Shown here: positions 1,214 through 18,017 of the stretch, in pieces | Layout of the letters: each line of letters begins with the position of its first letter | Position numbering within the stretch: the stretch's first letter is position 1 | Source: Nitrosomonas sp. | Lineage (GTDB): Bacteria; Pseudomonadota; Gammaproteobacteria; Burkholderiales; Nitrosomonadaceae | DNA: 40,262 bases | Reading direction: 5' to 3' | Assembly: GCA_021774155.1 (NCBI GenBank) | Contig: JAJFJH010000361.1 | Span: 1-40,262 of the forward strand | Notes under the pieces: model-generated | Told to the model about the DNA's origin: nothing | The model's database searches: none | The model's input: the letters and a program-made list of their open reading frames with translations, nothing else | Program-made: the position numbers and the translations under genes

Positions 1214-2521
1214 TTAAATTTTAGAGACTATGCGATTCTCGGGAAACAGCACTTTAAAGCAACTTCCTCCTCCAGCTTTACTTTCAATTTTTAACTGGGC
1301 TTGATGGCGATTTAATACGTGTTTAACAATAGCCAATCCCAGTCCTGTTCCACCCGTTTCACGTGAACGGCTGCTATCTACTCGATAAAAACGCTCGGTT
1401 AACCGTGGAATATGTTTTCGATCAATACCAATACCACTGTCTTGCACTGAGAAAACACCTTGCCCATTACTGATCTGCCAACTAAGTGTTACTTCACCCT
1501 CATCTGGTGTATATCGAATAGCATTACTAACCAAATTACCAAAAGCGCTACGTAATTCGTCTTCATTACCCAATAATTGTGTTTCTGGTACAGAATTAAG
1601 CTTAATGACATGCCGACCTGCGCTCAGGGATTCAGCTTCATGATACAAATCATTTAACATTACTTGAACATCAATATGTTTCTCACCCAGTAAATTTGGC
1701 GTACTCTCAAGCCGTGATAAAGTAAGCAAATCCTCGATTAAACGTAACATGCGCATGGATTGATCGTTCATTAATGCCAATGCCTGCTTATTCATTTCGG
1801 CATCAACATTATTCTCTTCGGAAAGCGTTTCGAGAAATCCAATAATAACGGTTAACGGTGTGCGTAATTCATGTGAAATATTAGCAATGAAATCTCGCCG
1901 CATGATCTCGATATTTTCAAACCGAGTAATATCACGGCTGATCAGCAATTTTTGCTTAGCGCCATAGGGAACAAGTTGTAAAGACAAGATTAATTTATGA
2001 TGACGAGACTGTTTTAGCACCAGTGGATGACTGTAATCTCTAGCAGCCAAATAATCTACGAACTGCAAGTCTCTAACTAAATAGGTGATTTGCTGTTCAG
2101 CATCAACTTCCAGCGTAATACCTAGATGTTTCTCAGCCATCGGATTACACCACTCAATTCGATCATCATCATCGAGAATCACAACGCCCTCTGGCATCGC
2201 CGATGTCGCGCTTTGCATACGCTGTAGCGCCAAACTTAAGCGCTGTTGACTCTGGCTATGAGCGCGTACAAAACGTGCCAATGATGCAAACAAATCACCC
2301 CAGGTGCCTGAGCCACCGTCAGGAATAGTTGACACATCTAATTCAGATGTCTGCAACCAGCGATCTAATTCGTCCCGATGACGTATATGTCGAATGACGA
2401 CAAACAATAAAACACTGCTATAAAATATCAGCGCAAAAACCGCGCCGAACATCGCCCATAATATGACGGCTATGAAAGTAAGTATAAAAATACTGTGGAA
2501 ACGTTGCCAGAAAATAGACAC
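1214..2521 (-). CDS. phoR: Phosphate regulon sensor histidine kinase PhoR
   Basis: A membrane histidine kinase of 435 residues. Two hydrophobic segments lie within residues 8-45, followed by a linker, a PAS domain (about 105-200) and a HisKA domain with the phospho-acceptor box FIANISHELRTP (His about 217). The ATPase domain has N box NLVSNAIRYTP, G1 DSGIGI and G2 GGTGLGLAIV. Architecture and length match PhoR, which senses phosphate status with the Pst/PhoU system and phosphorylates PhoB. The start codon is GTG. Oddly, no phoB lies upstream: the next gene upstream, about 100 bases away, is a GGDEF-EAL protein. The partner must be elsewhere or the kinase serves another regulator. Confidence 0.85.
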   Translation of the reverse strand: MSIFWQRFHSIFILTFIAVILWAMFGAVFALIFYSSVLLFVVIRHIRHRDELDRWLQTSELDVSTIPDGGSGTWGDLFASLARFVRAHSQSQQRLSLALQRMQSATSAMPEGVVILDDDDRIEWCNPMAEKHLGITLEVDAEQQITYLVRDLQFVDYLAARDYSHPLVLKQSRHHKLILSLQLVPYGAKQKLLISRDITRFENIEIMRRDFIANISHELRTPLTVIIGFLETLSEENNVDAEMNKQALALMNDQSMRMLRLIEDLLTLSRLESTPNLLGEKHIDVQVMLNDLYHEAESLSAGRHVIKLNSVPETQLLGNEDELRSAFGNLVSNAIRYTPDEGEVTLSWQISNGQGVFSVQDSGIGIDRKHIPRLTERFYRVDSSRSRETGGTGLGLAIVKHVLNRHQAQLKIESKAGGGSCFKVLFPENRIVSKI

Positions 2522-2622
2522 TCAGATCATCTCAAAAAATGCGGGAAGGATTAAAGAAAACTCAATTGCGCAATAAGTTGTTTGGCTAAGTAAAGGCCGC
2601 CATGTCAATTGTTCAGTATGTC

Positions 2623-5559
2623 TTAGGTATTAACTTCTTCACCCACAACTTCTTTTTGGAAAAAATCAGCAAACGGCGCGGGTTTGCCTACAAAATAACC
2701 TTGAGCGTAGTCAATATCCATATTTTCTATAATTGAAAATATTTTGTCATTCTCTACAAATTCAGCTGTAATCCTCTTACCAAACCCTCTAGCAACACTA
2801 CATAATGCTTGCACTAAGATTTTATCATCTTCACTTTGGATTAGGTTTCTTATAAATGACCCATCTATTTTCACTGCATCAACAGGCAGTTCTCTTAAAT
2901 AATAAAAAGAAGAAAAACCAACACCAAAATCATCCAAGACAAAACCACACCCTAATTCCTTGATCTCCACCATAAGGCTTCTCGCACCCGGTAGGTTTTC
3001 TAAAGCCGCCGTCTCTGTAATTTCAAACACCAGTTTTCTTGGATCAACATTATGATAAGTAAGCTCCCGTTTCAGAATTGGCAACAATTCAGGGTCGTTA
3101 AATGCATGTGCAGACAAATTTATTGAAAATGTGACAGCTTGATCCGTTTGATTTATTTTAGCAGCCAAAGCAATAGCCTTACGCAACACTAAATGATCAA
3201 TCGCATGAATCAGCCCTGTCTGTTCCGCTGCCGGAATGAAGCCTGCGGGCGAAAGTACCTTGCCATCACTATCACGCATTCGCAACAGCACCTCATAGTA
3301 ATCAATTGACTTACTTCTCACATCCATAATCGGCTGCACATAAAGCAGGAAATTATCATGCAAATGAGAATATTCAATTTTCTCTTTCCAATACACAAGC
3401 GTATGCATGCGCTCACGGCTATGATCATCATTTGAAAACAGATGCCAAGCACTACGACCTGTTTCTTTCGCTTGATACATCGCCAAATCGGCAGCAGCTA
3501 ACAAATCATGCACATTACTTCCATGCTCGGGAAACAGCGCAATGCCGATACTAGCCGAAATCTTATGTGTGCGATTATTGATTGTTAACTGTGCTTCATT
3601 TAAATGAGACAGCACTTTCTTTGCGACCTCAATGGCACCTTCTGCTTTTGTCTCTGGTAAAATAACGGCAAACTCGTCGCCCCCTAATCGACCCGTTATA
3701 TCATCTGTACGTATCGTGCGAGACAACATGCCGGAAACCATTTTAAGCATTGCATCACCGGCTTGTTGTCCACTGGTATCATTAATATATTTGAAGCGAT
3801 CGAGATCAAAAAAGAGTAGTGCACCCGGATGCTCGTACCTATCCGCCCAACTTAATACTTGCTCAAGCTCTTCACTAAAGCGACGTCGATTAAATAGGTT
3901 GGTTAATGGGTCATGGTCGGCCAACCAAGCGAGGTGTCCTTCAACTCGCTTATATTCGGTTACATCAAGGCCGACAGATAGCACCGCAGGATCATTTTCT
4001 GAATGCCAGACTAAACTAGAATGCAGCCAAGCAACATGACGTGTAGAGCCATCTTTGCAGTTAGTAATCGCTTCATGACGAAACTGCTCTCTCTTACCTA
4101 AATGTATCTCATCCAAAGAAGCTGGCAAATCAAGCATTCTATCTTCTGAAGCTAAAATTTTCAGAAAAGGCGTACCTTGAAGTTCATTCTCAGTATAGTG
4201 CGTCAGCATCTCTCCATAAGCATTCAATGTAATGATATTGCCACTGGCATTTTGAGTTAACACAATAACCTGAGCTGTGTCAAGCAAATTAGCAATAAAG
4301 TCTTTCTCCTTACTCAGCTCATCTCTTTGCTTAACCAACATTTTAGTACGATAGACGACCTTATCTTCTAATCTTTCCAACTGATATGAAAGTGACTCTG
4401 CCGCTTCATAAACCACATCGACTTCGTCTTTAAACTTTTGCTTTTTATTCGCCGCATAGAGTGAGGTACGGAAATTGTCAAAATTACCACTCGCTAACAG
4501 TGGCAACGTAAAAGCAATATCCTTTAAACGAGACAGCAATCGAGTAAAGATTACAAATAACAATATTTCTGAAATAATCAATCCAAGTAAGCCAATCAAG
4601 GCTATTTTCCATATTGAATCATAAATATTATTAACCGCCTGAGTCACATCAGTAATAACGACAAAATGTGCTCTATCAGCTGCCACGGTATTCATTAAAG
4701 GGAACAATTTGATTTGCTTATATTGATTATTCCAATTGATTAGAACACCATTCTCCAGACTAGTAATACTTGGGTATTCCTCAACTGCTTGCTTGAGTAT
4801 CTCAAGGTTTCTTTTTTTGTTAGTCAAAGCAGTAAGGCGTATTCCCCAATCAGGTATTAACATCTCGCCCTGTTTAGTATCTTCGTCCTGTTCGTTCACA
4901 AACAAACCGACATCTGCACCGGATACACTTTTAAAACGAAGAAACGCATCAGCCAATGAAATGCCAATGACTACAACACCAGCATTTTTACCTTCCACTA
5001 ACAATGGCGCAACAAAAAACTGTATACAGCTTTTCCTGCAAAGTAACGGGCTAATAGGCTGTTCCTTAAGATTGACATCCTCGACCCAATTTTGCATCGA
5101 CTCATGCTCGTACAAGTTAGAGTCAAATATGTCCCAGTCCACTACTAATTGATTAGATCTGCTATAGAACCGTACAAGTTCTATCCCATTATGAAACTGC
5201 AATAATGACCAATGCTGACCAAATACAGTATTAATCCTCTCTTTATTCCCTTCGTGTAATACCTTGCTCATGCCTTCCAAAAAAGGAATCATTTCCGCGA
5301 TCTGGCGCAGGTCTTGCGAAGAACTTTTAATTAATGTATCAACTTCCCGCTCATAACGTTGATATTCAGAATTGCGTTGATTTTCAAAATTATCCATCAA
5401 TCCCAAATAACTAATCGTACAAAACAACAATACGACGGCTAGCAGAATCAAGCTACTTAGCAGTGAAATTTTCCATTTTAGACTAAGAAATGCTCGCTCT
5501 TCATTGTAGACTACCGAGTCATGACGCCTGATCGGCTCTTTTATAGGATCTTGTGTCAT
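2623..5559 (-). CDS. dCache-PAS-GGDEF-EAL c-di-GMP signalling protein
   Basis: A 978-residue sensor enzyme. Transmembrane helices at about 30-53 and 318-340 flank a periplasmic domain of about 260 residues resembling double-Cache sensors, with a close Cys pair (LCRKSC, about 175-180). Next come a HAMP-like linker, coiled segment and PAS domain (about 420-540). The GGDEF domain has an intact GGDEF at about 627 (diguanylate cyclase). The EAL domain carries EVL near 757, NLSAHAF, ITET, LDDFG at about 876 and AEFVE, so the metal ligands for phosphodiesterase activity appear present. An ATG at 5559 follows an in-frame TTG by one codon. It is last in a tight run with the barrel gene (17-base gap), so its periplasmic domain may respond to whatever the neighbours bind or transport. 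Confidence 0.9.
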   Translation of the reverse strand: MTQDPIKEPIRRHDSVVYNEERAFLSLKWKISLLSSLILLAVVLLFCTISYLGLMDNFENQRNSEYQRYEREVDTLIKSSSQDLRQIAEMIPFLEGMSKVLHEGNKERINTVFGQHWSLLQFHNGIELVRFYSRSNQLVVDWDIFDSNLYEHESMQNWVEDVNLKEQPISPLLCRKSCIQFFVAPLLVEGKNAGVVVIGISLADAFLRFKSVSGADVGLFVNEQDEDTKQGEMLIPDWGIRLTALTNKKRNLEILKQAVEEYPSITSLENGVLINWNNQYKQIKLFPLMNTVAADRAHFVVITDVTQAVNNIYDSIWKIALIGLLGLIISEILLFVIFTRLLSRLKDIAFTLPLLASGNFDNFRTSLYAANKKQKFKDEVDVVYEAAESLSYQLERLEDKVVYRTKMLVKQRDELSKEKDFIANLLDTAQVIVLTQNASGNIITLNAYGEMLTHYTENELQGTPFLKILASEDRMLDLPASLDEIHLGKREQFRHEAITNCKDGSTRHVAWLHSSLVWHSENDPAVLSVGLDVTEYKRVEGHLAWLADHDPLTNLFNRRRFSEELEQVLSWADRYEHPGALLFFDLDRFKYINDTSGQQAGDAMLKMVSGMLSRTIRTDDITGRLGGDEFAVILPETKAEGAIEVAKKVLSHLNEAQLTINNRTHKISASIGIALFPEHGSNVHDLLAAADLAMYQAKETGRSAWHLFSNDDHSRERMHTLVYWKEKIEYSHLHDNFLLYVQPIMDVRSKSIDYYEVLLRMRDSDGKVLSPAGFIPAAEQTGLIHAIDHLVLRKAIALAAKINQTDQAVTFSINLSAHAFNDPELLPILKRELTYHNVDPRKLVFEITETAALENLPGARSLMVEIKELGCGFVLDDFGVGFSSFYYLRELPVDAVKIDGSFIRNLIQSEDDKILVQALCSVARGFGKRITAEFVENDKIFSIIENMDIDYAQGYFVGKPAPFADFFQKEVVGEEVNT

Positions 5560-5576
5560 CAATGTATCAATGTATT

Positions 5577-6869
5577 TTAGAAACGATAAGAAGCTTGCAC
5601 CGCAAAAAGATTCCAGTGTTGGCTAGTAGGTGACGTCCTTGGATTATCCAACGGTGAAAGCCAAGCTGTACCATTGATACGATGGTACTCAGCACGCAAC
5701 ATAAATGAAGGCGTAACATTAAATCGCAAGCCTACCGTAATGTCTTTAGCAAATTGACTATGTGCAGGACGTTGGCCTCCAGTCGAGCGAGCAAAGGCTT
5801 TACCACTACGATCACTTTTGTCAGTATAAAGAACATCGTAACGCAACACACCTTCCCACTTTTTATTAAAGCGATAAACGCCCTGAAAATAATAACTCTC
5901 GCCAGTAAAGCTCATATCTGAGACCACATCAGAATTTTTAATTTTAAAATGGCGCAGCGCATACTCAGAAGTCAAGCTCCATTTTTCAGCATTATATTCC
6001 GCAGAAAAATATATGGGTGAAAATTGAATGGTACCGGAGCTGAACTTATCGGATGTAGGATCGTAACCTACATTTGTCTGCGACCCACTGACTGCTAAAC
6101 GAATACGTTTATCATTAGTTTCATAAATCCCCCGACCTATATAGGATAATGCCGGCGTTAAGTCACCTTCTCCAACAGGCACTGATGCCTTAGTGTCTTT
6201 ATCACTAACAACTGGTCTTGCTAATCCAAATTGGATGGCAATACTGCCAAGATCAGCATGGGAAGAGTCCACATAAAAATGTACGGCATCCGCAGAAAGT
6301 GCAAGATTACGTGTACGATCAAAATAAATGGATTGAGGCAATAAGATACTTGGGCGTGTAAACGCAACATCACGTGTGTCGTTATAAAAACCAAGTGGAT
6401 TTTTTAAACGACCGAGACGTACGCCGAATTGGCTTGTTTCATGCGAATATAATCGATAGTCGGCAAATCCAAAATCAAGTCGAGGCGTCGCAGAATTTCC
6501 ATTACCTGCACGACGCGACAAAACTTGTGCTGACAGTTGTAGTCTTGGCATAGGACGCATCAAGGCATTGAGTCCTGCCTCTGTAAAACCAAAACTACCA
6601 CCGTTATCTGTATTTCCAAATACATCATTGTCTGAAGTTACAATATATGCTTGGCTGACAAAACCTTGAAATTGTAAATTACCTGGTAATTCTCTATTCT
6701 TAAACCAATCGCGCACAGAAGGCGACATACTCTCCTTTGTTTCATCCACTGGCTCCTGAGCATATATAGAACAACCCCACATTAGCATAGAGGTAAACAT
6801 TAACGTAATGGTCAAATTATAATAATTAGGCATACCACTATTTGATTTGAAGGACATGGATATCTTCAT
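5577..6869 (-). CDS. Outer-membrane beta-barrel, porin-like protein
   Basis: About 430 residues. After a short charged start there is a hydrophobic stretch ending near CSIYAQ, which looks like a signal peptide with cleavage after Ala-Gln. The rest alternates short amphipathic strands rich in Tyr, Phe, Arg and Gly and ends in VQASYRF, with the C-terminal Phe expected of outer-membrane barrels. The segment near FGVRLGRLKNPLGFYNDTRD resembles porin-like barrels. The substrate is unknown. Possible starts are at 6869, 6857 and 6833; the first two overlap the upstream gene, implying translational coupling. It lies between a PstS-like periplasmic protein and a GGDEF-EAL sensor. Confidence 0.75.
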   Translation of the reverse strand: MKISMSFKSNSGMPNYYNLTITLMFTSMLMWGCSIYAQEPVDETKESMSPSVRDWFKNRELPGNLQFQGFVSQAYIVTSDNDVFGNTDNGGSFGFTEAGLNALMRPMPRLQLSAQVLSRRAGNGNSATPRLDFGFADYRLYSHETSQFGVRLGRLKNPLGFYNDTRDVAFTRPSILLPQSIYFDRTRNLALSADAVHFYVDSSHADLGSIAIQFGLARPVVSDKDTKASVPVGEGDLTPALSYIGRGIYETNDKRIRLAVSGSQTNVGYDPTSDKFSSGTIQFSPIYFSAEYNAEKWSLTSEYALRHFKIKNSDVVSDMSFTGESYYFQGVYRFNKKWEGVLRYDVLYTDKSDRSGKAFARSTGGQRPAHSQFAKDITVGLRFNVTPSFMLRAEYHRINGTAWLSPLDNPRTSPTSQHWNLFAVQASYRF

Positions 6870-7311
6870 TAATGTACGTCGACTCTAAGTAGCCTATTGC
6901 GCCCGGTGTACTGGCAATCTTGGCCAACATTTCTTCGGGTGAAGAGACACTAGTAGGCGCCTGGCCTGTGCCCGAAAATACAAGTCGGTCCCAAGCTAGG
7001 CGAAGTTGATATGGAAAAACTTTTAGCTGCTCTTTAGAAAAGTCATGATGAAGAGCATTATTATCAGAAAGTACAAAAACTTTTATCAAACTCCCATTCG
7101 ACCAAGTTCTCATTCGCATGCTAAAAATGGCACGCAATACATTAACCGAAACACTCTCCTCATTAACTTCAGAATGAGTCACAATCTGATAGTGCCCATG
7201 GGCCTTTGCTTCGTCCGTGACAAATAGAAAACAGACTAGCAAAGCGCAACAGTATATGGCATTAAGTTTTCTCAAGTGATCAGAACACCATATTTTATTT
7301 GTTGCAATCAC
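6838..7311 (-). CDS. Short PstS-like periplasmic substrate-binding-domain protein
   Basis: A 157-residue protein with an N-terminal hydrophobic segment (about residues 18-33) and probable cleavage near AKAHG. The mature part resembles the single-lobe phosphate-binding-protein-like family: an early IFSMRMRTWSNG segment, then FPYQLRLAWDRLVFSGTG and a closing TPGAIGYLE. No ABC permease or ATPase is near, so it is unlikely to feed a classical importer. The start is GTG, inside the end of the upstream acyltransferase gene (17-base overlap). Its stop overlaps the start of the barrel gene. This packing suggests a ligand-capture role linked to the barrel and the c-di-GMP sensor; that role is inferred. 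Confidence 0.7.
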   Translation of the reverse strand: MIATNKIWCSDHLRKLNAIYCCALLVCFLFVTDEAKAHGHYQIVTHSEVNEESVSVNVLRAIFSMRMRTWSNGSLIKVFVLSDNNALHHDFSKEQLKVFPYQLRLAWDRLVFSGTGQAPTSVSSPEEMLAKIASTPGAIGYLESTYINEDIHVLQIK

Positions 7312-8083
7312 TTACTTCAGCAATTCTTGCATGAGTTTCTCTTGAAAGATAATCGCTGTACTCACCATGCTCCGTTACAACCTCCCAAGCATCGCGATTA
7401 TCTTGCTTCATTTTATCGAATATTCTGGTTAACTCACCATAATATGGTCGACGCAAACCATAATGCTGAATTGCTGGTCCAATAGGATTTAAACCCAAGC
7501 TATAATAGCTTAACAATCTATTCAAAGCAGGATCCATAATTGTGAGCCAACTATAGATATTGTATTTAGCACTCAGACGTACAATGCCAGCCGCCAATAC
7601 TAAAGTTAAATTTTTGATTGTTCGTCGATCAGTTTTGGCAGTGTCTGCTGCAGGCTTTCTTGTCTTAAAATTACGACGCTCAGCCTTGCGCCTTTCAAAC
7701 CTCTTGATGATCAGAAAACGAGAAATCTCACCCGTATGTTGACGTGAGAAATTATCCGCATTAAAAAGATCAAAATTAATTTTTGTATACTGTTCAACCG
7801 GGAATAATTTCTTTGGGTTTTTTTTATCAAACATTATCAAACGCGTTGTCCCAATAAATTCGCCCGTTTGACGATATCGTATAAGAACATGCGAAGAATG
7901 ATCATCATAATTATCTTTCTCCTGCCCGTCAGGATAAAGTGAAGCTTCATATCCTGGAACATTCATATCGATACATAGCTTCTGGTAGCGCATACGAAAC
8001 ACGACTTCTAATAAACCAGGTGTATCCGCTATAACAATTTCAAAATACTCGTGAAAAGCTTTATATAAATCATTCATAAACAC
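7295..8083 (-). CDS. PEP-CTERM/exosortase-associated N-acyltransferase (N-acyl amino acid synthase type)
   Basis: A 262-residue protein resembling the PEP-CTERM/exosortase-system acyltransferases, which are distant relatives of acyl-homoserine-lactone synthases and the FeeM-type N-acyl amino acid synthases. Visible hallmarks are an early VVFRMRYQKLCIDMN, then FIGTTRLIMF and GEISRFLI, the E-x-S-R-F core of the family. Members transfer a long acyl chain, usually from acyl carrier protein, to the amino group of an amino acid. No acyl carrier protein gene is in the window. GTG at 8083 has an AAAGG five bases upstream; an ATG lies two codons later. It heads the overlapping run acyltransferase, PstS-like, barrel, GGDEF-EAL. 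Confidence 0.75.
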   Translation of the reverse strand: MFMNDLYKAFHEYFEIVIADTPGLLEVVFRMRYQKLCIDMNVPGYEASLYPDGQEKDNYDDHSSHVLIRYRQTGEFIGTTRLIMFDKKNPKKLFPVEQYTKINFDLFNADNFSRQHTGEISRFLIIKRFERRKAERRNFKTRKPAADTAKTDRRTIKNLTLVLAAGIVRLSAKYNIYSWLTIMDPALNRLLSYYSLGLNPIGPAIQHYGLRRPYYGELTRIFDKMKQDNRDAWEVVTEHGEYSDYLSRETHARIAEVSDCNK

Positions 8084-8188: not shown

Positions 8189-10033
8189 TTAACTCATACG
8201 CTGTTTAAACCAATACTCCAGCATCATTAATACCCATATCATAGTTCCGTAGTAACTCGCATGCTCTTTTAAATGCTGACCCAGTAACTGGTCAATAAAA
8301 TCAGCGCGTACAATTTGACGCGCTTTCAGATCAACCAAGCTATCCGCAGCCATTGACTTTAGCAATCGATGTTCGTGAAGCCAAACACCAAAAGGCAAAC
8401 CAAAACCTTGCTTTTGCTTAGCCAATACTTCGTCGGGCAAAAAACCGCGCAAAGACTCTTTAAAGAAATAACGCAGTTTTGTTCTTTTAAGTTTTAATTG
8501 TGGTTCTAAACGTGTAGAGAACTCAACCAACTCGTTGCTAATGAGAGGAAACCCTACATTCATACCTGCTAATTCACAGGCTTTCACAACTTTTGGCAGA
8601 TCGTTATCTGCCAAAGTAATTTTAAAATCAAATGCTAACATATTATTAATCAAACTTTCTGTCTGAGTTTGATGATAAACTTCATCTAATAGCTCAGAAG
8701 GTCGCGCAAGATCGATCGTTGCCAAGAAGTCTTTAGTAAAAACAGCCTCATAACCATAACGCCTAAGCAAATTATAATTTTCCATGCGCGCAGGCATCGG
8801 AGTCAGTGCCTGTTCAATGTAACTACGAGCTTTACGCATCAAAGCTATTTTTTCACTACCAGCAATACCAAAAGCTATCGGTTCAAATAGCCTTTTACGT
8901 AACACGAGCGGCAAATGCTTGTAATATGTAAATAGGTGTTGTTTTGCATAACGCTCATTACCACCAAATAATTCATCGCCACCATCACCACCAAGTATTC
9001 GGGTCAACCCATCAGTTTTTGCCATGCGTGCACAATAAAACGCTGGGATGGCGGAAGCATTGCCAAATGGTTGGTCAAAAACCGCTGCGATCTGTGGTAT
9101 TGCCGCAACAACATCATCAGGTGTCACATAATATTCATTGTGTTGAGTGGAGAAATGCTTAGCAGCAATACGTGCGTATTTCATTTCGTCATATCCTTCG
9201 GCTTCAAATCCGATAGAATACGTTCTAACTGGTTGACCTGTCACTTCACCCAATACTCCTGCTATGGTTGAGCTATCAGTGCCACCACTCAGAAAAGTAC
9301 CCACTGTTTGACCACCCGTTGCCTCACGCACACTTGATCGCAACAAGCCTCTAAGTTCAAATTTTAATTCATTAAATGGACGTTTCTCGATTTCATCAAA
9401 AGCAACCTTCCAATAAAAATCCGATTTAACTTCGCCTTTCTTAAAGGTTAAATATTGGCCTGGTAATAAACGCTGCTGATCCTTGTAGATAGAATCAGGG
9501 CTTGGCACCATATGAAAATAAATATAATTAAATAAACTTTGTGAACTAATCTCTGAATTGGCCAATGGATGCCGAATGATGGCATCTGCTGATGTAGAGA
9601 AAATTAAAGCCTCACCTGACACCTGGTAAGACAGTGATCGGGTACACATCCGGTCGACCGCAAGAATAGCCACACCGGTGTCCTCATTTAGCATACAGAA
9701 GGTAAACTCACCTTCTAAATCAGCAAAAATGTTCCCACCTTTACTTTGACTTCCGTCAGCCAATACTTTTGCAATTCCACCGATACGATCAAAATCACGA
9801 GGAGATTTACCTTGGTATCTCACCTGTCCCCATAACGCAGCCACGATTCCATTATTTTGATAAGAATACATGTGCCTGTCGTCTGCAGCAATCGCCATCG
9901 CTGCTGTTGATTTTGTCAACGTTAATATTTCACCGCCATCAAAACGAGCAATGGGTTCCGCCATTTTCTCAATTAACTGGCGGTTATCCGTATTGGTAGC
10001 GCTATAGCCGATCCAGCCACACAATCCACTCAT
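8189..10033 (-). CDS. Asparagine-synthetase-like amide-forming enzyme with degenerate glutaminase domain
   Basis: 614 residues in two parts. The C-terminal synthetase half is intact: PP-loop FLSGGTDSS (about 247-255) and LGGDGGDELFGGNERY, which adenylate a carboxylate. The N-terminal half has the fold order of class II amidotransferases but not the usual residues. It begins MSGLCGW, so Cys is residue 5. The RGPD region reads ARFDGG, the NGEIYN region reads LWGQVRYQG, and the SDTE segment is absent. The enzyme may therefore use free ammonia or another amine, as lasso-peptide cyclases and beta-lactam synthetases do, rather than glutamine. It is related to the XrtA-associated asparagine synthase family. 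ATG at 10033 has AGGAAA upstream. It follows the ligase and decarboxylase genes on the same strand. Confidence 0.75.
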   Translation of the reverse strand: MSGLCGWIGYSATNTDNRQLIEKMAEPIARFDGGEILTLTKSTAAMAIAADDRHMYSYQNNGIVAALWGQVRYQGKSPRDFDRIGGIAKVLADGSQSKGGNIFADLEGEFTFCMLNEDTGVAILAVDRMCTRSLSYQVSGEALIFSTSADAIIRHPLANSEISSQSLFNYIYFHMVPSPDSIYKDQQRLLPGQYLTFKKGEVKSDFYWKVAFDEIEKRPFNELKFELRGLLRSSVREATGGQTVGTFLSGGTDSSTIAGVLGEVTGQPVRTYSIGFEAEGYDEMKYARIAAKHFSTQHNEYYVTPDDVVAAIPQIAAVFDQPFGNASAIPAFYCARMAKTDGLTRILGGDGGDELFGGNERYAKQHLFTYYKHLPLVLRKRLFEPIAFGIAGSEKIALMRKARSYIEQALTPMPARMENYNLLRRYGYEAVFTKDFLATIDLARPSELLDEVYHQTQTESLINNMLAFDFKITLADNDLPKVVKACELAGMNVGFPLISNELVEFSTRLEPQLKLKRTKLRYFFKESLRGFLPDEVLAKQKQGFGLPFGVWLHEHRLLKSMAADSLVDLKARQIVRADFIDQLLGQHLKEHASYYGTMIWVLMMLEYWFKQRMS

Positions 10034-10076
10034 TGTTATTTTCCTATTCTCAAACAGTTAAATTTATTTTAATTAT

Positions 10077-11309
10077 TCACACCAATACTTCTACAGGCAA
10101 AGGATGACTTAGAAATGCCGTTGGGCTAGCAGTTAATCCATAAGCACCTGATTGAAAGACGACAACTAGATCCCCAACCTCAACTTTGGCCATTTCCATT
10201 TTATCTGCCAACAAATCCAGCGGCGTACAAAGCGGGCCAACGACTGAAACCGTCTCTCGTTTACCTTTATAAACTTTGTTGCCCACCACAACAGGGTAAT
10301 TTTTTCGAATCACCTGACCAAAATTACCAGATGCGGCTAGATGATGATGCAGCCCACCATCCGTTATCAGAAAAACTTGCCCTCTTGATAATTTTCGTTC
10401 TAACACTTTGCACACGTAAATCCCTGCTTCGGCCACCAAGAAACGGCCCAACTCAATTACAATCTGAGTTTCAGGCAATCGCTGCCTCACTTCAGGTAGT
10501 ATCCGTCGTAAATTTTGGCCAATAGCGGCTACGTCTAAATCACATTCTCCGGGAAAATAAGGGATACCAAAGCCACCCCCGATATTTAGCTGCCGAATTG
10601 GCCTGGATACTTTCTCAGCTAAGCGCATACCCAGCTGCAACGTATTTTCGTGAGCTTCTTGTATAGACGCCACTTTTAAGTTTTGTGAGCCACTAAAGAT
10701 ATGGAAACCTTCGAAATCTAGTCCAAGCACAATTAGTCGTTCCAGCATAGCGGGAACCCGCTCGGCATCCATGCCAAATTGCTGTGATCCACCTCCCATT
10801 TTCATTCCAGATGACTTAAGTTCAAAGTCTGGATTCACACGCACAGCCACTTTTGGACAAATACCAAGTTTTTCGCCAATACGAACTATCTGTTCCATTT
10901 CTTGCTCAGATTCCATATTGAGAACGATACCTGCCGCTATAGCACTGGACAGCTCCTCAATTCTTTTTCCTGGGCCCGCAAAACTAATGTTCTCAGGTGC
11001 CATCGTTGTATCCAATGCCACTTTCATTTCGCCCATTGACGCAACGTCAATACCGTCAACCAACGTTGCAAAATGTTGTACAACAGCAGGCATAGGGTTG
11101 GCTTTCATTGCATAATGCAAATGAATCTCATCTGGCAAATGTTGACGTAACAACGCCACTCGCTCTGCAATCTTTTCCCGGTCATAAGCATAAAAAGGCG
11201 TATGACCTATTCGTTGCGCCAACCTAGTCAGTGACATACCACCAATTTGAAGACAATCATCATGCACGGAGAATTGTGTCAAAGGTGCGTGTACTGGACG
11301 TAAATTCAC
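10077..11309 (-). CDS. PLP-dependent decarboxylase, exosortase A system-associated
   Basis: A 410-residue fold-III decarboxylase of the Orn/DAP/Arg type. The PLP lysine is in HYAMKANP (Lys about 69). Further hallmarks are HIFSGSQ, the glycine-rich NIGGGFGIPYF phosphate loop, ELGRFLVAEAG, and CTPLD where the partner active-site Cys of this fold sits. The family normally sits beside the AMP-ligase found next door, in genomes with the type 1 exosortase system. The natural amino acid substrate is not established; the product would be an amine. The GTG start overlaps the ligase stop by four bases (GTGA), so the two are translationally coupled. Confidence 0.85.
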   Translation of the reverse strand: MNLRPVHAPLTQFSVHDDCLQIGGMSLTRLAQRIGHTPFYAYDREKIAERVALLRQHLPDEIHLHYAMKANPMPAVVQHFATLVDGIDVASMGEMKVALDTTMAPENISFAGPGKRIEELSSAIAAGIVLNMESEQEMEQIVRIGEKLGICPKVAVRVNPDFELKSSGMKMGGGSQQFGMDAERVPAMLERLIVLGLDFEGFHIFSGSQNLKVASIQEAHENTLQLGMRLAEKVSRPIRQLNIGGGFGIPYFPGECDLDVAAIGQNLRRILPEVRQRLPETQIVIELGRFLVAEAGIYVCKVLERKLSRGQVFLITDGGLHHHLAASGNFGQVIRKNYPVVVGNKVYKGKRETVSVVGPLCTPLDLLADKMEMAKVEVGDLVVVFQSGAYGLTASPTAFLSHPLPVEVLV

Positions 11310-12892
11310 CCGGGAATTTCCATAAAAACACCTTGTAATTCTGACGCTAGGCGCCTACGGTCAATTTTCCCATTAGGGTTTCGTGGCAAATAGCCTTCAC
11401 GGATATCAATTAGACTCGGCAACATAAACGCCGGAAGGTGTGGTTTACATGCAGCTATCAACTCATCACTATCAATCACCACACCTTCACGTGCGGTAAC
11501 AACGACAACAATCGCTTGACCTAAAGCAGGATGCGGGACTCCAATGGCGATGGCATCTCCGACGCATTCTGTCGCATAGATAACTTCTTCGACTTCTGTT
11601 GGGCTGACTCGGTAACCCGAAGTCTTGATCATTTCATCTCGGCGACCAATAAAAAATAAATAGCCTTCTTCGTCCATACGTACTGTATCGCCTGACCATA
11701 CGGCAAGCTCTGGTATTGGAAGACCTGATTGCCTAGAGGGGATAGGCTTAAAACAAGCTGCTGTCTTTTGCGCATCACCCCAATACCCCATAGAAACCAA
11801 GGACCCACGATGAACAAGTTCTCCTGGCTCCCCAACCGCACATTGAGAACCATCTTCACGTAACACAAGAATTTCAGCATTCGGTATTGCCTTACCCATT
11901 GAATCAGGTCGCGCATCAATATCCTCTGGTGGCAGAAAAGTTGAACGAAACGCTTCGGTCAATCCGTACATTAAAAAAACTTTTGTTTTGGGTAAGGCAT
12001 GGCGAAGTAAACTCAATGTTGCAATTGGCATAGCACCACCTGAATTGGTAATGTAACGTAATGAGTCAACCTTTTCCCAATTTAATTGCGCCAGTTGTAT
12101 CCACAAAGGGGGTACGGCTGCGAGACCACTAATATTCTCTTTTTCTAACGTTCGAATAATGTCTCGCGGCAACAAATAATTCATTAGAACATTTGTCGCG
12201 CCTTTATAAAAAGCCGTCGTTAATTGACTTAATCCATAGTCAAAGCTAAGTGGTAGTACAGACAAAATTCTATCGCTGGATTGATTCTCTAAATATTGTG
12301 AAACACTCTTCGCTCCGACTACAAGATTACGGTGCGACAACACAACACCTTTTGGCTTACCCGTACTTCCTGATGTATAAAGAATAGCAGCCATATCACT
12401 GTCGATTCTACGACGTACTTTATTTAACCCAACACTGGAACGAATAGCCTCCCAGGTTAAAACTTTCAAGCCTGGGAGATTTGGCAGCTCATCAACCAAA
12501 CCAACGACAATAACCGTGTGTAAATCATGACACTGCGGCAGAACATCTATCAGTAATTTTAAGCGTTCTAGCGAAGTTACTAGGACTCTAACATTGCAAT
12601 CGCCCAGAATATAGGTCACTTGCTCTGGTCTAAGCAATGGATTAATTGGCACAAACACACCGCCAGCAGCTGTTGCTCCAAATAACGCAATAACAACTTC
12701 CAATCGTTTCTCTAAATAAACAGCTAGACGCTCATTGCGATCAACGCCTAAACTAATCAAACTAGCTGAGAATCTTTCAACACCTGTTGCCAAATCAGCA
12801 TAGGACAGTCGCTTTCCCTGATAAACCAGCGCCTCTGCATCAGGCGCATCAGTTGCCGAATCAATAATTAATTCATGTGCAAGATCAAACAT
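11306..12892 (-). CDS. Acyl-CoA ligase (AMP-forming), exosortase A system-associated
   Basis: A 528-residue ANL-superfamily adenylating enzyme. It contains the P-loop-like ILYTSGSTGKPKG, the core motif YGLTEAFR, the hinge GRRDEMIKTSGYRVSP, and the C-terminal catalytic lysine in RNPNGKIDRR. It activates a carboxylic acid as acyl-AMP and transfers it to a thiol (CoA or a carrier protein). Family members in exosortase-bearing genomes are almost always adjacent to the PLP decarboxylase, as here. The substrate is unknown. It begins 50 bases after prsR ends and continues the same transcription unit. Confidence 0.85.
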   Translation of the reverse strand: MFDLAHELIIDSATDAPDAEALVYQGKRLSYADLATGVERFSASLISLGVDRNERLAVYLEKRLEVVIALFGATAAGGVFVPINPLLRPEQVTYILGDCNVRVLVTSLERLKLLIDVLPQCHDLHTVIVVGLVDELPNLPGLKVLTWEAIRSSVGLNKVRRRIDSDMAAILYTSGSTGKPKGVVLSHRNLVVGAKSVSQYLENQSSDRILSVLPLSFDYGLSQLTTAFYKGATNVLMNYLLPRDIIRTLEKENISGLAAVPPLWIQLAQLNWEKVDSLRYITNSGGAMPIATLSLLRHALPKTKVFLMYGLTEAFRSTFLPPEDIDARPDSMGKAIPNAEILVLREDGSQCAVGEPGELVHRGSLVSMGYWGDAQKTAACFKPIPSRQSGLPIPELAVWSGDTVRMDEEGYLFFIGRRDEMIKTSGYRVSPTEVEEVIYATECVGDAIAIGVPHPALGQAIVVVVTAREGVVIDSDELIAACKPHLPAFMLPSLIDIREGYLPRNPNGKIDRRRLASELQGVFMEIPG

Positions 12893-12941
12893 TTATAAAT
12901 TTAATTTGCAATAATAGAACAACAATACTTTGATTTATTAA

Positions 12942-14300
12942 TCATTTGAGCCCATACCTGCTCATTAAATCATAAATAGTGGGGCGACTAACACCCAACA
13001 ACTTAGCAACTTGAGCAACATTTCCATCGGCTCTTGCTAATGCTTTGATTAATGCCTTGTATTCTTCTTTTTCACGTACTTCACGCAAATTAAGCGGTTC
13101 CATATCTGCATCACTAGGATGCAAACCAAGATCCTCTGCAGCAATACTAGGACCATCTGTCATAATAACCGCACGTTTTATACAATTCTCCATTTCCCTA
13201 ACATTACCTGGCCAACCATGCGATTCTATCGCAGCCAAAGCCTCCTGACTAAAATTTAACGAAGACTTTCCTTCTTTATCACAAAACTTATTTTTAAAAT
13301 AATGCGCCAGTAAAATAGCGTCACCAATTCGGTCACATAAAGGCGGAATCGTAATCACAATTTCACTTAATCGATAATAAAGATCCTCACGAAAGCTCCC
13401 CTCTTCAATCAATTTTTTTAAATTCTGGTGTGTTGCACATACGATTCTTACATCCACCGATATTTCTTCACGCCCCCCTATTCTTTCAATCATTCTTTCT
13501 TGAAGAAAGCGTAGAAGCTTAGCTTGAAGAGACATTGGCAAATCTCCCACCTCATCTAAAAAGAAAGTTCCTCCATTAGCAAGCTCAATCTTTCCGAGCG
13601 TCTGTTTCGATGCACCAGTAAATGCACCTTTCTCAAAACCAAAAAGTTCACTTTCGAGAAGATTTTCAGGTATTGCCGCACAATTTATGGCTATAAATCG
13701 CCTTTCTTTCCTGACGCTCGATTCATGAAGCAGCCGCGCCATGACTTCTTTACCCGTACCACTGTCACCAAGCAACATGACCGTTGCGTCTGAAGGCGCT
13801 ACTTTTTCTAAATCTCTGCATGCTTTAATCATGACTGGGTCACGTGTTATAACACCAGAAACAGGTGAGTCTCCTTGACTTAATGTTAAATTACGATTTT
13901 CTTGTTGCAATGCGTGCAAATAAAATGCTCGCTCGACAATTAACCCAAGCATAACTGGATCAAACGGTTTTTGATGAAAATCATACGCGCCCATTTCAAT
14001 CGCTTTTAAAGCATTGCTATGGTCTTGATTTCCAGTTAGTACAATTATTTTAGTATCGGGCGCGAGTGTAAGTATCTGCTGTAAAGTAGCCAAACCCTCA
14101 GTGGATCCATCAGGATCAGGCGGTAGGCCAAGGTCCATCGTTATAACTGATGGTTCATGCCGTCGAACTTGTGCAAGCGCACTTTCTCGATCAGTCGCAA
14201 CAAACACCTCATAACCATCAAAATTCCAGCGTAACTGTTTCTGTAGACCCAAGTCATCCTCAATGACCAACAGTCTTTTTTTTTCTTGTTTTAATTGCAT
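12942..14300 (-). CDS. prsR: PEP-CTERM-box sigma-54 response regulator PrsR
   Basis: About 452 residues. The receiver domain has IEDD near the start, the phospho-Asp in ITMDLGLP (about 56) and the conserved Lys in HQKPFDP. The AAA+ sigma-54 activator domain has Walker A GDSGTGKE (about 178-185) and the GAFTGA loop (about 225-230) that contacts sigma-54. A Fis-type helix-turn-helix ends the protein (AKLLGVSRPTIYDLM). PrsR activates sigma-54 promoters of PEP-CTERM protein genes, with PrsK as its kinase. An in-frame TTG at 14348 would add 16 residues, but ATG at 14300 has AGG seven bases upstream and gives the expected length, so it is preferred. Confidence 0.9.
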   Translation of the reverse strand: MQLKQEKKRLLVIEDDLGLQKQLRWNFDGYEVFVATDRESALAQVRRHEPSVITMDLGLPPDPDGSTEGLATLQQILTLAPDTKIIVLTGNQDHSNALKAIEMGAYDFHQKPFDPVMLGLIVERAFYLHALQQENRNLTLSQGDSPVSGVITRDPVMIKACRDLEKVAPSDATVMLLGDSGTGKEVMARLLHESSVRKERRFIAINCAAIPENLLESELFGFEKGAFTGASKQTLGKIELANGGTFFLDEVGDLPMSLQAKLLRFLQERMIERIGGREEISVDVRIVCATHQNLKKLIEEGSFREDLYYRLSEIVITIPPLCDRIGDAILLAHYFKNKFCDKEGKSSLNFSQEALAAIESHGWPGNVREMENCIKRAVIMTDGPSIAAEDLGLHPSDADMEPLNLREVREKEEYKALIKALARADGNVAQVAKLLGVSRPTIYDLMSRYGLK

Positions 14301-14487
14301 ATGATTACCTGCACTTTTAACCGTTGATTTGACAGATGAGTCACTCAAAACTTTTACTTAGCCTCAACATCGGGATTGAGAAAATAAACGAGACAATCTT
14401 TGTAACATTTTGAATATTAATATAGCAAATACAGCACGAAAGAATATGCATACGAACTCATAATCAATTCATAGATCTTGCTTCTGC

Positions 14488-14526
14488 CATAAGAGTAACA
14501 GTATTACTCAATTCCTAACTCTTATG
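14488..14526. other. Overlapping alternative hairpins between prsK and prsR
   Basis: A perfect 9-base inverted repeat CATAAGAGT / ACTCTTATG (14488-14496 with 14518-14526, 21-base loop) overlaps a second perfect repeat GAGTAA / TTACTC (14493-14498 with 14504-14509, 5-base loop). The two share the GAGT arm, so they cannot form together. They lie in the 240-base gap after prsK. There is no adjacent T-run, so it is not a clear terminator. Confidence 0.4.
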
Positions 14527-14540
14527 ATCTAAGGGTATTC

Positions 14541-16601
14541 TTATGTTGTTGCTAGTTGCAATTCTAAATGAAATGCTGTACCAACCATTTCTTCACTTAC
14601 CACTTCTAGCTTACCCCCGAGTTCATGGATGTACTCTCTGCTCTCAAAAACTCCGATCCCCATACCTGCAGGTTTAGTTGACTCAAAAGGCTTAAAAAGG
14701 CGCTCATTAATGAATTTCTCACTCATGCCGTGCCCAGTATCTTTAATTTCAATAACCGCAGCACCACCTTTTTTCAATAACCGAACACTTACCCGACCAT
14801 CAGCGGTTGTCGCCTCAATCGCATTCTGAATGAGATGGCCCAACACACGCTCAAATCGCGTGCGATTAGCTAACACAACCAATTCTTTATCGACAACCTC
14901 CAAAACAGGACACGGCCTAAAAGCCGATTTTCCTTCCATAATCTCAAGCAACAACTTATCCAATAATAAAAAATCAGGCTTTTCTAAAGCATTTCCACTA
15001 CTTAACTTTTCCAGCAGCCGCTTCATTTTATGAACTGAAAGATCGACTGTTTCCACCATGTCACGCTGAAACTCTGGGTTGCCTTTGTGTCTTTCTGCGT
15101 TAGAAAGCAAAAGTGATAACTGAAATATTAGATTTTTAAGATCATGTACCATAAAAGTAGACATCCGATTGAAAGATTCAAATTGACGAGCAACAATCAA
15201 TGCTTTTGCAGCCTCATCTTGAGCCAAGTAACTTGCTGCTTGGTTACCAGCAACTCTCAGCAAATCCGTCACTTCCCAGTTTAGCTTCATGCGGCTTCTT
15301 GGCTGCATCAGCACAACAAAGCCCATCAGTTTCTTTTGCAACATCAACGGAATGACTAATCCCACAGTCGATAACGTTTTAAGCCAGTCGGGCAATACAA
15401 TTTCTGTATTGTTTACTGTATTTATGTTGCTTCCTTGCAGATCAACCACCCATTCGTTATCTTCCAAGAAACGACTAAAATCACTATTTACAGATTCTGA
15501 TTCATTTATTAACGTCATATTCCAAGACGCAGCAGGCTCATAATTACTTGTTTCACGACAAAGCCATAAACCACCTCCCGGACTTTCTACTAGATTAGCT
15601 AACGCTTCAATCACCCTCTCACCTAAATCACCTCTCCCTTTTGAGAGGGTACGCGTAAAACGCAACCATTCCTCCCTGTAATCATAGTTATAACTAAAAA
15701 AATGCTTACTAATAAACACTTTTAACCAAGACCTTATGGTGCCAGAAAACATTACGCCGACAAGCAACATCATTGCACCAAAAAGAAACGTCATTTGCAA
15801 TACTGTGCCCCAACTTCCTCCAGAAAAACGCAAATAATACCCAGCTGCCGCCATGACAAGTAGATAAATCGCCGTCCCAAACAATGCAGCTGAGTAAAAT
15901 AAAATATGGCGTGAAACGGCTATCCCAACCGCCCATTGTGGATTCCGCGCAGCTGAAACTGCTATTAATGGAACAACCAAGGCATTAATTCCGCCCCGGG
16001 CAGCCCATAGATCTTCATTCACATGTCTGAATAACAAGGCATCACTGTATAAATAAAAATCATAGATAAAAATACTACCAATACCCAAACAAATAAACTT
16101 TATACCCCAACGCTGATCAACCGGAGTGTTCCTATAGAACTGCTCAACTAACATCACACCAATAATAGCCATTAACACACTACTGGCGATACTGGCCAGA
16201 GAATTATTGATCACATTGTATGTAACTCCTATTTCATCAGGAGAAAAAAGAGGAACAATTAAAAAAACAAGGTAGAGCACTGATATAGCAATGACGGAGG
16301 TCCTGATTTTTGGAAGAGAAACATCATTTTTTGCCGTCTGAAAAGGCCCCAGCAAGACAATTAGAAAAGCAGACCAAGTCACATTACGAAGCATTTCTAA
16401 ACTATACGTTAAAAATGGCGCAGAATAACCCCAAGCAAGTTGATAAACGATGATTGCGGCCCATAATGCAGAAGACAAACAAGCAACCGTTAGCATCATG
16501 CCATACAGACGCCCTCGCCAGCTTGTCAACAAAAGTACTGTCAAAAAGAAAAAGGCCAATACTGCAGACGCATAACTTACTAGTGCAATGTTTTCCAACA
16601 T
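14541..16601 (-). CDS. prsK: XrtA/PEP-CTERM system histidine kinase PrsK
   Basis: 686 residues. The first about 290 residues hold eight or so hydrophobic segments, a multi-pass sensor. A GAF-like region follows (about 320-465), then the kinase core with the unusual dimerisation box FMVHDLKN (His about 486), ATPase N box HLIQNAIEAT, DTGHGM, and a G2-like GMGIGVFESREYI. The layout and length match PrsK, the kinase partner of PrsR. It starts 22 bases after the sugar-transferase reading frame ends and precedes prsR, so the three probably form one transcript. The stimulus is unknown. Confidence 0.9.
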   Translation of the reverse strand: MLENIALVSYASAVLAFFFLTVLLLTSWRGRLYGMMLTVACLSSALWAAIIVYQLAWGYSAPFLTYSLEMLRNVTWSAFLIVLLGPFQTAKNDVSLPKIRTSVIAISVLYLVFLIVPLFSPDEIGVTYNVINNSLASIASSVLMAIIGVMLVEQFYRNTPVDQRWGIKFICLGIGSIFIYDFYLYSDALLFRHVNEDLWAARGGINALVVPLIAVSAARNPQWAVGIAVSRHILFYSAALFGTAIYLLVMAAAGYYLRFSGGSWGTVLQMTFLFGAMMLLVGVMFSGTIRSWLKVFISKHFFSYNYDYREEWLRFTRTLSKGRGDLGERVIEALANLVESPGGGLWLCRETSNYEPAASWNMTLINESESVNSDFSRFLEDNEWVVDLQGSNINTVNNTEIVLPDWLKTLSTVGLVIPLMLQKKLMGFVVLMQPRSRMKLNWEVTDLLRVAGNQAASYLAQDEAAKALIVARQFESFNRMSTFMVHDLKNLIFQLSLLLSNAERHKGNPEFQRDMVETVDLSVHKMKRLLEKLSSGNALEKPDFLLLDKLLLEIMEGKSAFRPCPVLEVVDKELVVLANRTRFERVLGHLIQNAIEATTADGRVSVRLLKKGGAAVIEIKDTGHGMSEKFINERLFKPFESTKPAGMGIGVFESREYIHELGGKLEVVSEEMVGTAFHLELQLATT

Positions 16602-16623: not shown

Positions 16624-18017
16624 TTATCTACCACCTTTTCCAAAAAGAACCACTTCTACCGTATCAATTAAAATAATCACATCAAGGAAAAGACTATGAT
16701 TCTTTACATAATATAAATCATATTGAAGCTTTTCTATTGCGTCTTCCACTGAAGAGCCATATGGATACTTAACCTGAGCCCAACCTGTAATGCCTGGTTT
16801 GATCGTATGACGAAAATTATAATATGGCACTTTTGCACATAGAGTGTCGACAAAATAAGGTCGTTCTGGACGAGGACCAACAAAACTCATTTCATTCTTT
16901 AACACATTTAAAATCTGAGGTAATTCGTCTATTCTCAGTTTTCGTATAAACCCTCCAACCCGTGTAACTCTTGGGTCATTCTCAGTCGCCCATTGCGGCG
17001 CTTGATTCTTCTCTGCATTTTTTTCATGCTGCGAAATTTAAGCACCATAAATGCATCGCCTCCTTTTCCCACTCTTTCTTGCTGATAAAAAATTGGGTAA
17101 CCATCCTCAATCAAGATCAAAATGGCAGTGACAATCATGATTGGTATAGCAACAACCAATAAAATAACGCACGCAAACACATCAAAAACACGCTTAATAA
17201 CCGAACGAAACAAACTTTGATCAAACCCTCCACCAAAAACCAACCAACTTGGGTATAAAGAGTCCATTCGAATATGCCCTTTCTCCCGTTCGAAAAAAGT
17301 CGCAATATCAGTAACTTTTATTCCGTGCATTTTACACTCCAGCAGTTCTTGAATAGGGAAACTTCCCCCACGTCTTTCCTGCGTTGCAATAATAATTTCA
17401 CTAACATTATATTGTGCAACTAACGAAACTAACGTACTGCCTGAAGCTAAAACATCAGACGCAGGAACACAACGCTCTTCTCCATAAAAGGGCACAAAAC
17501 CAACTATTTTAGGCCTACGATAGCCAGAATCATCTTCTTGTCGACCGATCAACTCTTTTGCATTTTCACCAATACCTAACACTAATGCACGAGGCTGCAG
17601 CACTCCCAGACTAGACCATTTGAAAAACAAGGTGCGCTCAGCAAGAATGACACAAAATGAAAGTATCATTACCACTATTAAGACCCCACGCCCTAAATAA
17701 AGCACAGGTATTAAATAGAACACAAAAGTCATCAAGGCAAAACTTACGACCATAGAAGGCATTAATCGAAATAAAATCGCTTTAAAATTTTGCCGCGAAT
17801 CTATTTGATACATACCAATGACGGCCATACTTGACATGATAATAAGAACATAGACTATGACTGCTGGAAACAATAAAGTTAACGAGTCTATAGCTGCTCC
17901 TTGATCATTAAAACGAACAAAAATACCCAAATAAAACACAGCTATCAATAACAAGAATTCTATACTGACAAGTAATGCAGTATACCTTGATATATAGTGA
18001 TTATAGATACGTAACAA
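16624..18017 (-). pseudogene. XrtA/PEP-CTERM system sugar transferase, frameshifted at a poly-A run
   Basis: Two frames together encode one polyprenyl-phosphate sugar transferase of the EpsB/WcaJ type associated with XrtA. The first (18017-16935, 360 residues) has N-terminal membrane helices, a nucleotide-binding-like middle and the cytoplasmic transferase start through VGKGGDAFMVLKFRSMKK. It then goes out of frame. The second frame continues AEKNQAPQWATENDPRV, RIDELPQ, SFVGPRPERP, PGITGWAQV and DLYYVKNHS to the stop at 16624. The break is at seven A on the coding strand (17018-17024); an eighth A would restore a single protein of 464 residues, the usual size. It starts at TTG (18017) after seven G. 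Sequencing error, mutation, or slippage on the homopolymer are all possible. Confidence 0.8.

What the first reader, a model, noticed from the sequence alone, without database searches (positions are those of the whole stretch)
8189..12892. Ligase, decarboxylase and asparagine-synthetase-like set as a possible small-molecule pathway tied to PrsK/PrsR
An acyl-AMP ligase and a PLP decarboxylase (translationally coupled) are followed by an amide-synthetase-like enzyme whose glutaminase half is degenerate, all directly downstream of prsK-prsR. Activating an acid, making an amine by decarboxylation, and joining them by an adenylating amide synthetase would give an amide. The families are known in exosortase genomes, but the product is not established. 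The acyltransferase at 7295 could add an N-acyl tail.
Basis: partly seen in the sequence, partly recalled or inferred. Interest (0 to 1): 0.7.

Follow-up and report, generated by a model that had tools for sequence, protein, structure and literature searches.

The report
Carrier-bound amino-acid decarboxylation beside exosortase genes
The genes are real and conserved, but they look less like 'acid plus free amine' and more like a module that hangs an amino acid on a small carrier protein and decarboxylates it there, next to a separate amide-forming enzyme that goes with the exosortase (surface-slime) system.

Summary
In detail: ligase (11306-12892), decarboxylase (10077-11309, GTGA overlap) and asparagine-synthetase-like AsnL (8189-10033) lie on one strand behind prsK-prsR, and AsnL has lost its glutamine site. 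The ligase pocket is closest, among solved proteins, to the amino-acid enzyme VinN; the amino-binding Asp is kept in 38 of 38 rows. The decarboxylase is closest to BtrK, which decarboxylates glutamate on a carrier protein; the residue that reads a basic side chain in relatives is Thr in 44 of 44 orthologue rows. Dedicated carrier proteins exist, on another contig here and near ligase or decarboxylase in 14 of 33 large stretches. Likely chemistry is VinN/VinL/VinO- or BtrI/BtrK-like: load an amino-dicarboxylic acid on the carrier, decarboxylate it to an omega-aminoacyl thioester; 'hydrolase 1' (Cys-Asp-His in 12 of 12) may transfer it. AsnL is a distinct exosortase-A partner: in 200 genomes all 42 with AsnL have XrtA, but within XrtA genomes AsnL is independent of the decarboxylase (p=0.29), while ligase, decarboxylase and hydrolase 2 track one another (p below 1e-6, relatedness ignored). 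Substrate and product are inferred, not shown.

The parts
11306..12892 (-). TIGR03098 ligase; predicted amino-acid:carrier-protein ligase (VinN-like pocket: D230, Y231, S299, F330, R331 in VinN numbering)
10077..11309 (-). TIGR03099 PLP fold-III decarboxylase; nearest solved relative BtrK; CTP where the aligned DAP decarboxylase has CET
11306..11309 (-). GTGA stop/start overlap between ligase and decarboxylase
8189..10033 (-). AsnL: asparagine-synthetase-like amide synthetase with dead glutaminase half; XrtA-linked family, below the TIGR03108 cut-off
12942..14348 (-). prsR, TIGR02915 response regulator directly upstream
14541..16601 (-). prsK, TIGR02916 histidine kinase
7295..8083 (-). TIGR03694 exosortase-associated acyltransferase (N-acyl amino acid synthase type, recalled and from a paper title); neighbour, membership in the pathway not shown

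Best explanation
The ligase and decarboxylase, with a dedicated stand-alone carrier protein encoded on another contig of this genome (C462), form a carrier-tethered amino-acid decarboxylation module like VinN-VinL-VinO or BtrI-BtrK. The ligase adenylates the side-chain carboxylate of an amino-dicarboxylic acid (Asp or a substituted Asp most likely, Glu next) and loads it on the carrier. The decarboxylase removes the alpha-carboxylate there, leaving a beta-alanyl- or GABA-type omega-aminoacyl thioester. 'Hydrolase 1' (Cys nucleophile), with its nucleophile-less partner 'hydrolase 2', then moves the group to an acceptor. AsnL is a separate XrtA-linked ATP-dependent amide synthetase that no longer draws ammonia from glutamine and probably amidates a carboxylate of the exopolysaccharide with an amine, in these genomes possibly the omega-amino acid. 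Shown: families, pocket residues, carrier genes, co-occurrence, loss of the glutamine site. Inferred: substrate, carrier-bound timing, transfer step, AsnL acceptor and amine.
For: Ligase: best PDB match for the pocket region is VinN (115 bits, next different protein 84). VinN's key residues as described in passages of PMC11253843 are kept at D230 and R331 (38 of 38 rows each); 231/299 are Tyr/Ser in 29 and Ala/Thr in 9. Decarboxylase: BtrK 282 bits versus 167 for the best DAP decarboxylase; lysA model 246.9, below its 297.9 cut-off, and a proper lysA (541.8 bits) sits elsewhere in the genome; CTP motif in 44 of 44 orthologue rows. Carrier: two PF00550 proteins over the cut-off on C462, each beside hydrolases 2 and 1, one also beside a second TIGR03098 ligase; a carrier gene within 6 kb of ligase or decarboxylase in 14 of 33 stretches of 11 kb or more, one of them weak (L090), including carrier-LIG-DC in two genomes without XrtA, AsnL or hydrolase 2 at the thresholds used (L083, L084). 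Co-occurrence within 51 XrtA genomes: LIG-DC p=7e-8, DC-hydrolase 2 p=3e-7 (relatedness ignored). Hydrolase 1: Cys, Asp and His in 12 of 12; hydrolase 2: Arg at the nucleophile place in 12 of 12. Thioester-before-decarboxylation precedent: passages of PMC11284099.
Against: Of the general models, a long-chain-fatty-acid--CoA ligase subfamily scores the ligase higher (313.2 bits, cut-off 476) than the amino-acid adenylation domain (257.3, cut-off 317.4); neither reaches its cut-off. VinN's Lys330 is Phe in all 38 ligase rows, and 9 rows have Ala at 231 as GrsA has, so the exact substrate is open. In this genome no carrier gene is near the ligase of the window, and 19 of 33 large stretches lack one. 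G146 and G183 keep LIG-DC but have no XrtA over the cut-off, no AsnL and no hydrolase 2 at the thresholds used, and no carrier near LIG-DC; whether one of their other PF00550 proteins (10 matches each) serves is unknown. AsnL is absent from 11 of 38 DC genomes and present in 15 without DC, so its link to the module is not obligatory. No biochemistry of the ligase, decarboxylase, hydrolase or AsnL families turned up in the paper searches.
Confidence: 0.6

Rival explanations
1. One reading: the ligase activates a fatty acid, the decarboxylase makes a free amine from a basic amino acid, and AsnL joins them into an amide.
For: Gene order, translational coupling, glutaminase-dead AsnL, acyltransferase neighbour, and a fatty-acid-CoA-ligase subfamily model that outscores the amino-acid adenylation domain, both below cut-off.
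Against: Amino-acid-type ligase pocket; BtrK as nearest relative and Thr at the distal-amino position; AsnL independent of LIG/DC within XrtA genomes.
Confidence: 0.08
2. The ligase-decarboxylase-carrier module is as proposed, but AsnL has nothing to do with it: it uses free ammonia (plentiful in a nitrifier) to amidate a uronic acid of the exopolysaccharide, and the neighbourhood reflects only common regulation.
For: AsnL tracks XrtA in 42 of 42 genomes and not DC (p=0.29); AsnL lies directly behind prsR without LIG/DC beside it in L014, L072 and L080 (in L080's genome LIG/DC are 18 kb away); Asp at the position of AsnB Glu348; a nucleotide-sugar dehydrogenase near AsnL in L061 and an epimerase like TviC, below its cut-off, in L077.
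Against: Where both exist DC and AsnL are within 5 kb in 19 of 27 genomes; in G039, which lacks this decarboxylase, AsnL is followed by a different fold-III decarboxylase (L066); the Cys loss is also found in relatives that are not named as nitrifiers, such as Massilia and Duganella.
Confidence: 0.25
3. The decarboxylase is a redundant DAP or ornithine decarboxylase and the ligase a generic acyl-CoA ligase; the set is an accident of the operon.
For: Same superfamilies.
Against: lysA cut-off not met, separate lysA present; LIG-DC within 500 bases on one strand in 30 of 35 genomes with both; conserved specific residues.
Confidence: 0.03

Closest known systems
VinN-VinL-VinO (vicenistatin starter unit)
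   Same: Stand-alone amino-acid adenylating enzyme, stand-alone carrier, PLP decarboxylase acting after thioester formation (PMC11284099 passages); nearest solved relative of the ligase pocket
   Different: Lys330 is Phe; exosortase/EPS context; carrier on another contig in this genome; no polyketide synthase among the window proteins scanned
BtrI-BtrK (butirosin side chain)
   Same: Decarboxylase clearly closest to BtrK among solved proteins
   Different: The butirosin ligase BtrJ is, from recall, of another class; no aminoglycoside genes among the window proteins scanned
TIGR03098 / TIGR03099 / TIGR03100 / TIGR03101 exosortase A-associated families
   Same: Members over the curated cut-offs
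   Different: These hypothetical-equivalog models state no substrate; the names 'acyl-CoA ligase' and 'hydrolase' are not favoured by the active-site residues
TIGR03108 XrtA amidotransferase
   Same: Same superfamily and XrtA context
   Different: AsnL 277 bits against a cut-off of 816.9; 25-26% identity; glutamine site lost; a true TIGR03108 (1104.5 bits) is separate in this genome on the XrtA contig
Beta-lactam and carbapenam synthetases, TsnB9
   Different: Asp where beta-lactam synthetase has Tyr348 (recalled)

Membership tests
VinN-type amino-acid adenylating enzyme | Asp230 binding the substrate amino group | tested here: met
   Asp in 38 of 38 rows
VinN-type amino-acid adenylating enzyme | bulky 231 and Ser299 | tested here: met
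   Tyr/Ser in the window protein; 29 of 38 rows Tyr/Ser, 9 Ala/Thr
VinN-type amino-acid adenylating enzyme | Lys330 and Arg331 | tested here: inconclusive
   Arg331 kept in 38 of 38, Lys330 is Phe in 38 of 38
VinN-type amino-acid adenylating enzyme | partner stand-alone carrier protein | tested here: met
   two in the genome on C462; near LIG or DC in 14 of 33 large stretches; use of them not shown
BtrK/VinO-type carrier-bound amino acid decarboxylase | closest solved relative BtrK, distal-amino residue lost | tested here: met
BtrK/VinO-type carrier-bound amino acid decarboxylase | acts on aminoacyl-carrier | not testable with these tools
   needs enzymology
DAP decarboxylase LysA (TIGR01048) | curated score | tested here: not met
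   246.9 against 297.9
long-chain-fatty-acid--CoA ligase (NF004837) | curated score | tested here: not met
   313.2 against 476
amino acid adenylation domain (TIGR01733) | curated score | tested here: not met
   257.3 against 317.4
TIGR03098 and TIGR03099 | curated scores | tested here: met
   787.9/592.35 and 625.6/478.45
TIGR03108 XrtA amidotransferase (AsnL) | curated score | tested here: not met
   277 against 816.9
glutamine-dependent asparagine synthetase (AsnL) | Cys2 and glutamine-site motifs | tested here: not met
   0 of 21 with Cys2; motifs absent in six AsnL proteins
beta-lactam synthetase type (AsnL) | Tyr of the Tyr-Glu dyad (recalled) | tested here: not met
   Asp350 aligned with AsnB Glu348; the beta-lactam synthetase residue is recalled

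The most novel reading that the evidence does not exclude
The module makes the amine handle of the exosortase system: an omega-aminoacyl group (beta-alanyl or GABA type) built on the carrier, moved by the Cys 'hydrolase 1' and fixed by AsnL as an amide on the exopolysaccharide, giving XrtA a primary amine onto which it transfers PEP-CTERM proteins, as sortases use an amine acceptor.
Probability: 0.1. Interest if true: 0.85.

Novelty: new variant of a known kind. Interest (0 to 1): 0.55.

Why it matters
It turns named but functionless exosortase-associated families into a concrete, cheap test (load, decarboxylate and transfer on a carrier). It questions two names (acyl-CoA ligase, hydrolase), and it sets apart an XrtA-linked, glutaminase-dead amide synthetase that falls below the one XrtA amidotransferase model. 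The acceptor of exosortase A is, to my knowledge (recall), unknown, and an amine-making module beside it would be a direct lead.

Tried and rejected
Sigma-54 promoter pattern: 25 matches against 26.04 expected, all with 2 mismatches, so no regulatory link shown. Suspected DC-AsnL fusion in L079 (1053-aa frame): by the coordinates the two matches lie in different frames, rejected. AsnL as obligatory partner of LIG/DC: rejected. AsnL as TIGR03108: rejected. A substitute decarboxylase near AsnL in the 15 AsnL genomes without DC: found in 1 (L066) by BLAST at 1e-8 in stretches of 6.5 to 16 kb. Acyltransferase TIGR03694: over the cut-off in 26 of 200 genomes; I did not test it against LIG/DC statistically. 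Literature: no paper held names TIGR03098, TIGR03099 or their model names (0 papers); none joins aminoacyl, acyl carrier protein, adenylation, decarboxylation and exopolysaccharide (0 papers); one search listed 4 papers, of which two were opened for passages, and the passages shown did not describe this module. From the listings single papers were opened for passages; two searches were read as listings (one paper, PMC4897644, was opened). Beta-lactam-synthetase-like chemistry for AsnL is not favoured, by a recalled residue.

Rows dropped: from the 27 AsnL loci, 7 were left out of A1 (L030 frame-split; L031, L033, L034, L035, L038 incomplete or shortened; L039 a Cys2-bearing relative). From, genomes G092, G142 and G009 (414-520 bits) and the second hits of G107 and G016 were not counted as AsnL. 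Searches count rows, some from one genome twice (window=L054, L041=L076, L045=L077); the 45th decarboxylase hit, L066 at 26%, is not an orthologue and has CHP. In one search five ligases below the cut-off were counted and G029:C23 was not; the strand flag for XrtA there is meaningless. The carrier model was built from hits in the same loci, so those match it by construction; the independent check is Pfam, made for the two carriers of C462 and the one of L083 and for seven whole genomes.
Full report
WHAT IS THERE. On the - strand the window reads split epsB, prsK, prsR, ligase, decarboxylase, AsnL, acyltransferase. The ligase and decarboxylase are full members of TIGR03098 and TIGR03099; the acyltransferase is a member of TIGR03694 (240.9 bits, cut-off 111.95). 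AsnL falls far below TIGR03108 (277 against 816.9). Ligase stop and decarboxylase start overlap as GTGA.

THE LIGASE. Over its whole length the best single-enzyme PDB match is VinN (203 bits; the five higher rows are a multi-domain gramicidin synthetase). For the substrate-pocket stretch VinN leads with 115 bits, the next different protein having 84. A review (passages, PMC11253843) names D230, F231, S299, K330 and R331 as VinN recognition residues. The window protein has D, Y, S, F, R. In 38 rows D and R are invariant, Phe replaces Lys330 in all 38, and 231/299 are Tyr/Ser in 29 and Ala/Thr in 9. Against this, a long-chain-fatty-acid--CoA ligase subfamily model outscores the amino-acid adenylation model (313.2 against 257.3 bits), both under their cut-offs. 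I weigh the pocket more: an amino-acid-type adenylating enzyme that probably also reads a free carboxylate; the exact amino acid is open.

THE DECARBOXYLASE. BtrK, titled L-glutamyl-[BtrI acyl-carrier protein] decarboxylase, is the nearest solved protein by a wide margin (282 bits; best DAP decarboxylase 167). The motif C-E-T of the aligned DAP decarboxylase (C-D in ornithine decarboxylase, recalled), whose acidic residue reads the distal amino group (recalled), is C-T-P in BtrK and in 44 of 44 orthologue rows. A housekeeping lysA is elsewhere in the genome (541.8 bits).

THE CARRIER. Contig C462 of the same genome holds two cassettes, each carrier-hydrolase 2-hydrolase 1 (TIGR03101, TIGR03100), one continuing into a second TIGR03098 ligase (725.8 bits, 53% identical to the first). 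Both carriers pass PF00550 (26 and 29.6 bits, cut-off 20.8). In relatives, mostly outside the Nitrosomonadaceae, the carrier lies near ligase or decarboxylase in several arrangements: 14 of 33 fetched stretches of 11 kb or more, one weak. Two genomes of genus g2 without XrtA, AsnL or hydrolase 2 at the thresholds used have carrier, LIG and DC (L083, L084); the ligase of L083 is under its cut-off (531.1) and its carrier barely over (21.2 bits).

HYDROLASES. In 12 of 12 hydrolase 1 sequences the nucleophile elbow holds Cys, with Asp and His conserved in 12 of 12; hydrolase 2 holds Arg there in 12 of 12. From recall, Cys-type alpha/beta-hydrolase enzymes are often acyltransferases. I therefore propose that hydrolase 1 transfers the aminoacyl group; this is inference.

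CO-OCCURRENCE. In 200 genomes of the order (tables): XrtA 51, AsnL 42 (at least 600 bits), DC 38, LIG 33, hydrolase 2 30. All 42 AsnL and all 30 hydrolase 2 genomes have XrtA; DC lies outside XrtA genomes in 7 and LIG in 2. Within XrtA genomes AsnL against DC is 27/15/4/5 (p=0.29), LIG against DC 28/3/3/17 (p=7e-8), DC against hydrolase 2 27/4/3/17 (p=3e-7). These p-values ignore relatedness. Distances: LIG-DC within 500 bases on one strand in 30 of 35; DC-AsnL within 5 kb in 19 of 27 and 10 kb in 23 of 27. So there are two units: a LIG-DC-carrier-hydrolase module, and AsnL as a general XrtA partner that usually sits with it when both are present. L066 is suggestive: AsnL is followed there by another decarboxylase (TIGR01048 258.9, below 297.9). 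G146 and G183 keep LIG-DC and the acyltransferase without AsnL, hydrolase 2 or XrtA over the cut-off, which I cannot explain.

LITERATURE. Passages of PMC9012009 say a conserved EPS cluster with two asparagine synthetase genes is encoded in floc-forming Zoogloea and Aquincola, and that without PrsK or PrsR Zoogloea cells were planktonic with soluble EPS; I did not establish whether either gene is AsnL. Passages of PMC4784049 show an asparagine synthase gene in the Thauera EPS cluster. Passages of PMC9850573 report prsK and epsB2 floc mutants. The title of Craig et al. 2011, seen in a reference list, links N-acyl amino acid synthases to exosortase; that paper is not held. A term search of PMC1569441, which defines PrsK/PrsR, found none of ligase, decarboxylase, amidotransferase, asparagine or acyl carrier in its main text.

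VERDICT. A real, conserved, functionally unassigned module, most likely carrier-bound amino-acid decarboxylation wired to the exosortase A/EPS system, plus a glutaminase-dead XrtA-linked amide synthetase.

Noticed in passing
16624-16905 and 16935-18017: epsB (TIGR03013) is split into two ORFs here but is one ORF in the close relative L013; a frame change or an assembly error.
   Followed up: partly
L040 (C462) 1653-5245 and 12517-15271: Two carrier-hydrolase cassettes in one genome; one with a second ligase, the other preceded by a 246-aa protein without a Pfam match at 0.001.
   Followed up: partly
L066:6616-9930: AsnL followed by a lysA-like but sub-cut-off decarboxylase and a flippase in a genome without LIG/DC over the cut-offs.
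   Followed up: partly
L081, L082: Two genomes of the window's genus keep LIG-DC-acyltransferase but show no AsnL, no hydrolase 2 and no XrtA over its cut-off.
   Followed up: partly
G000:C77:11121-11811: A further TIGR03694 acyltransferase copy that looks broken (two pieces, one with an in-frame stop).
   Followed up: no
2623-7311: A 157-aa protein, a porin-like protein and a GGDEF-EAL protein follow the acyltransferase in the same order in nine fetched loci (L013, L019, L025, L027, L028, L029, L036, L081, L082).
   Followed up: no
L030:9920-11837: The AsnL frame is split in Pseudoduganella violaceinigra.
   Followed up: no
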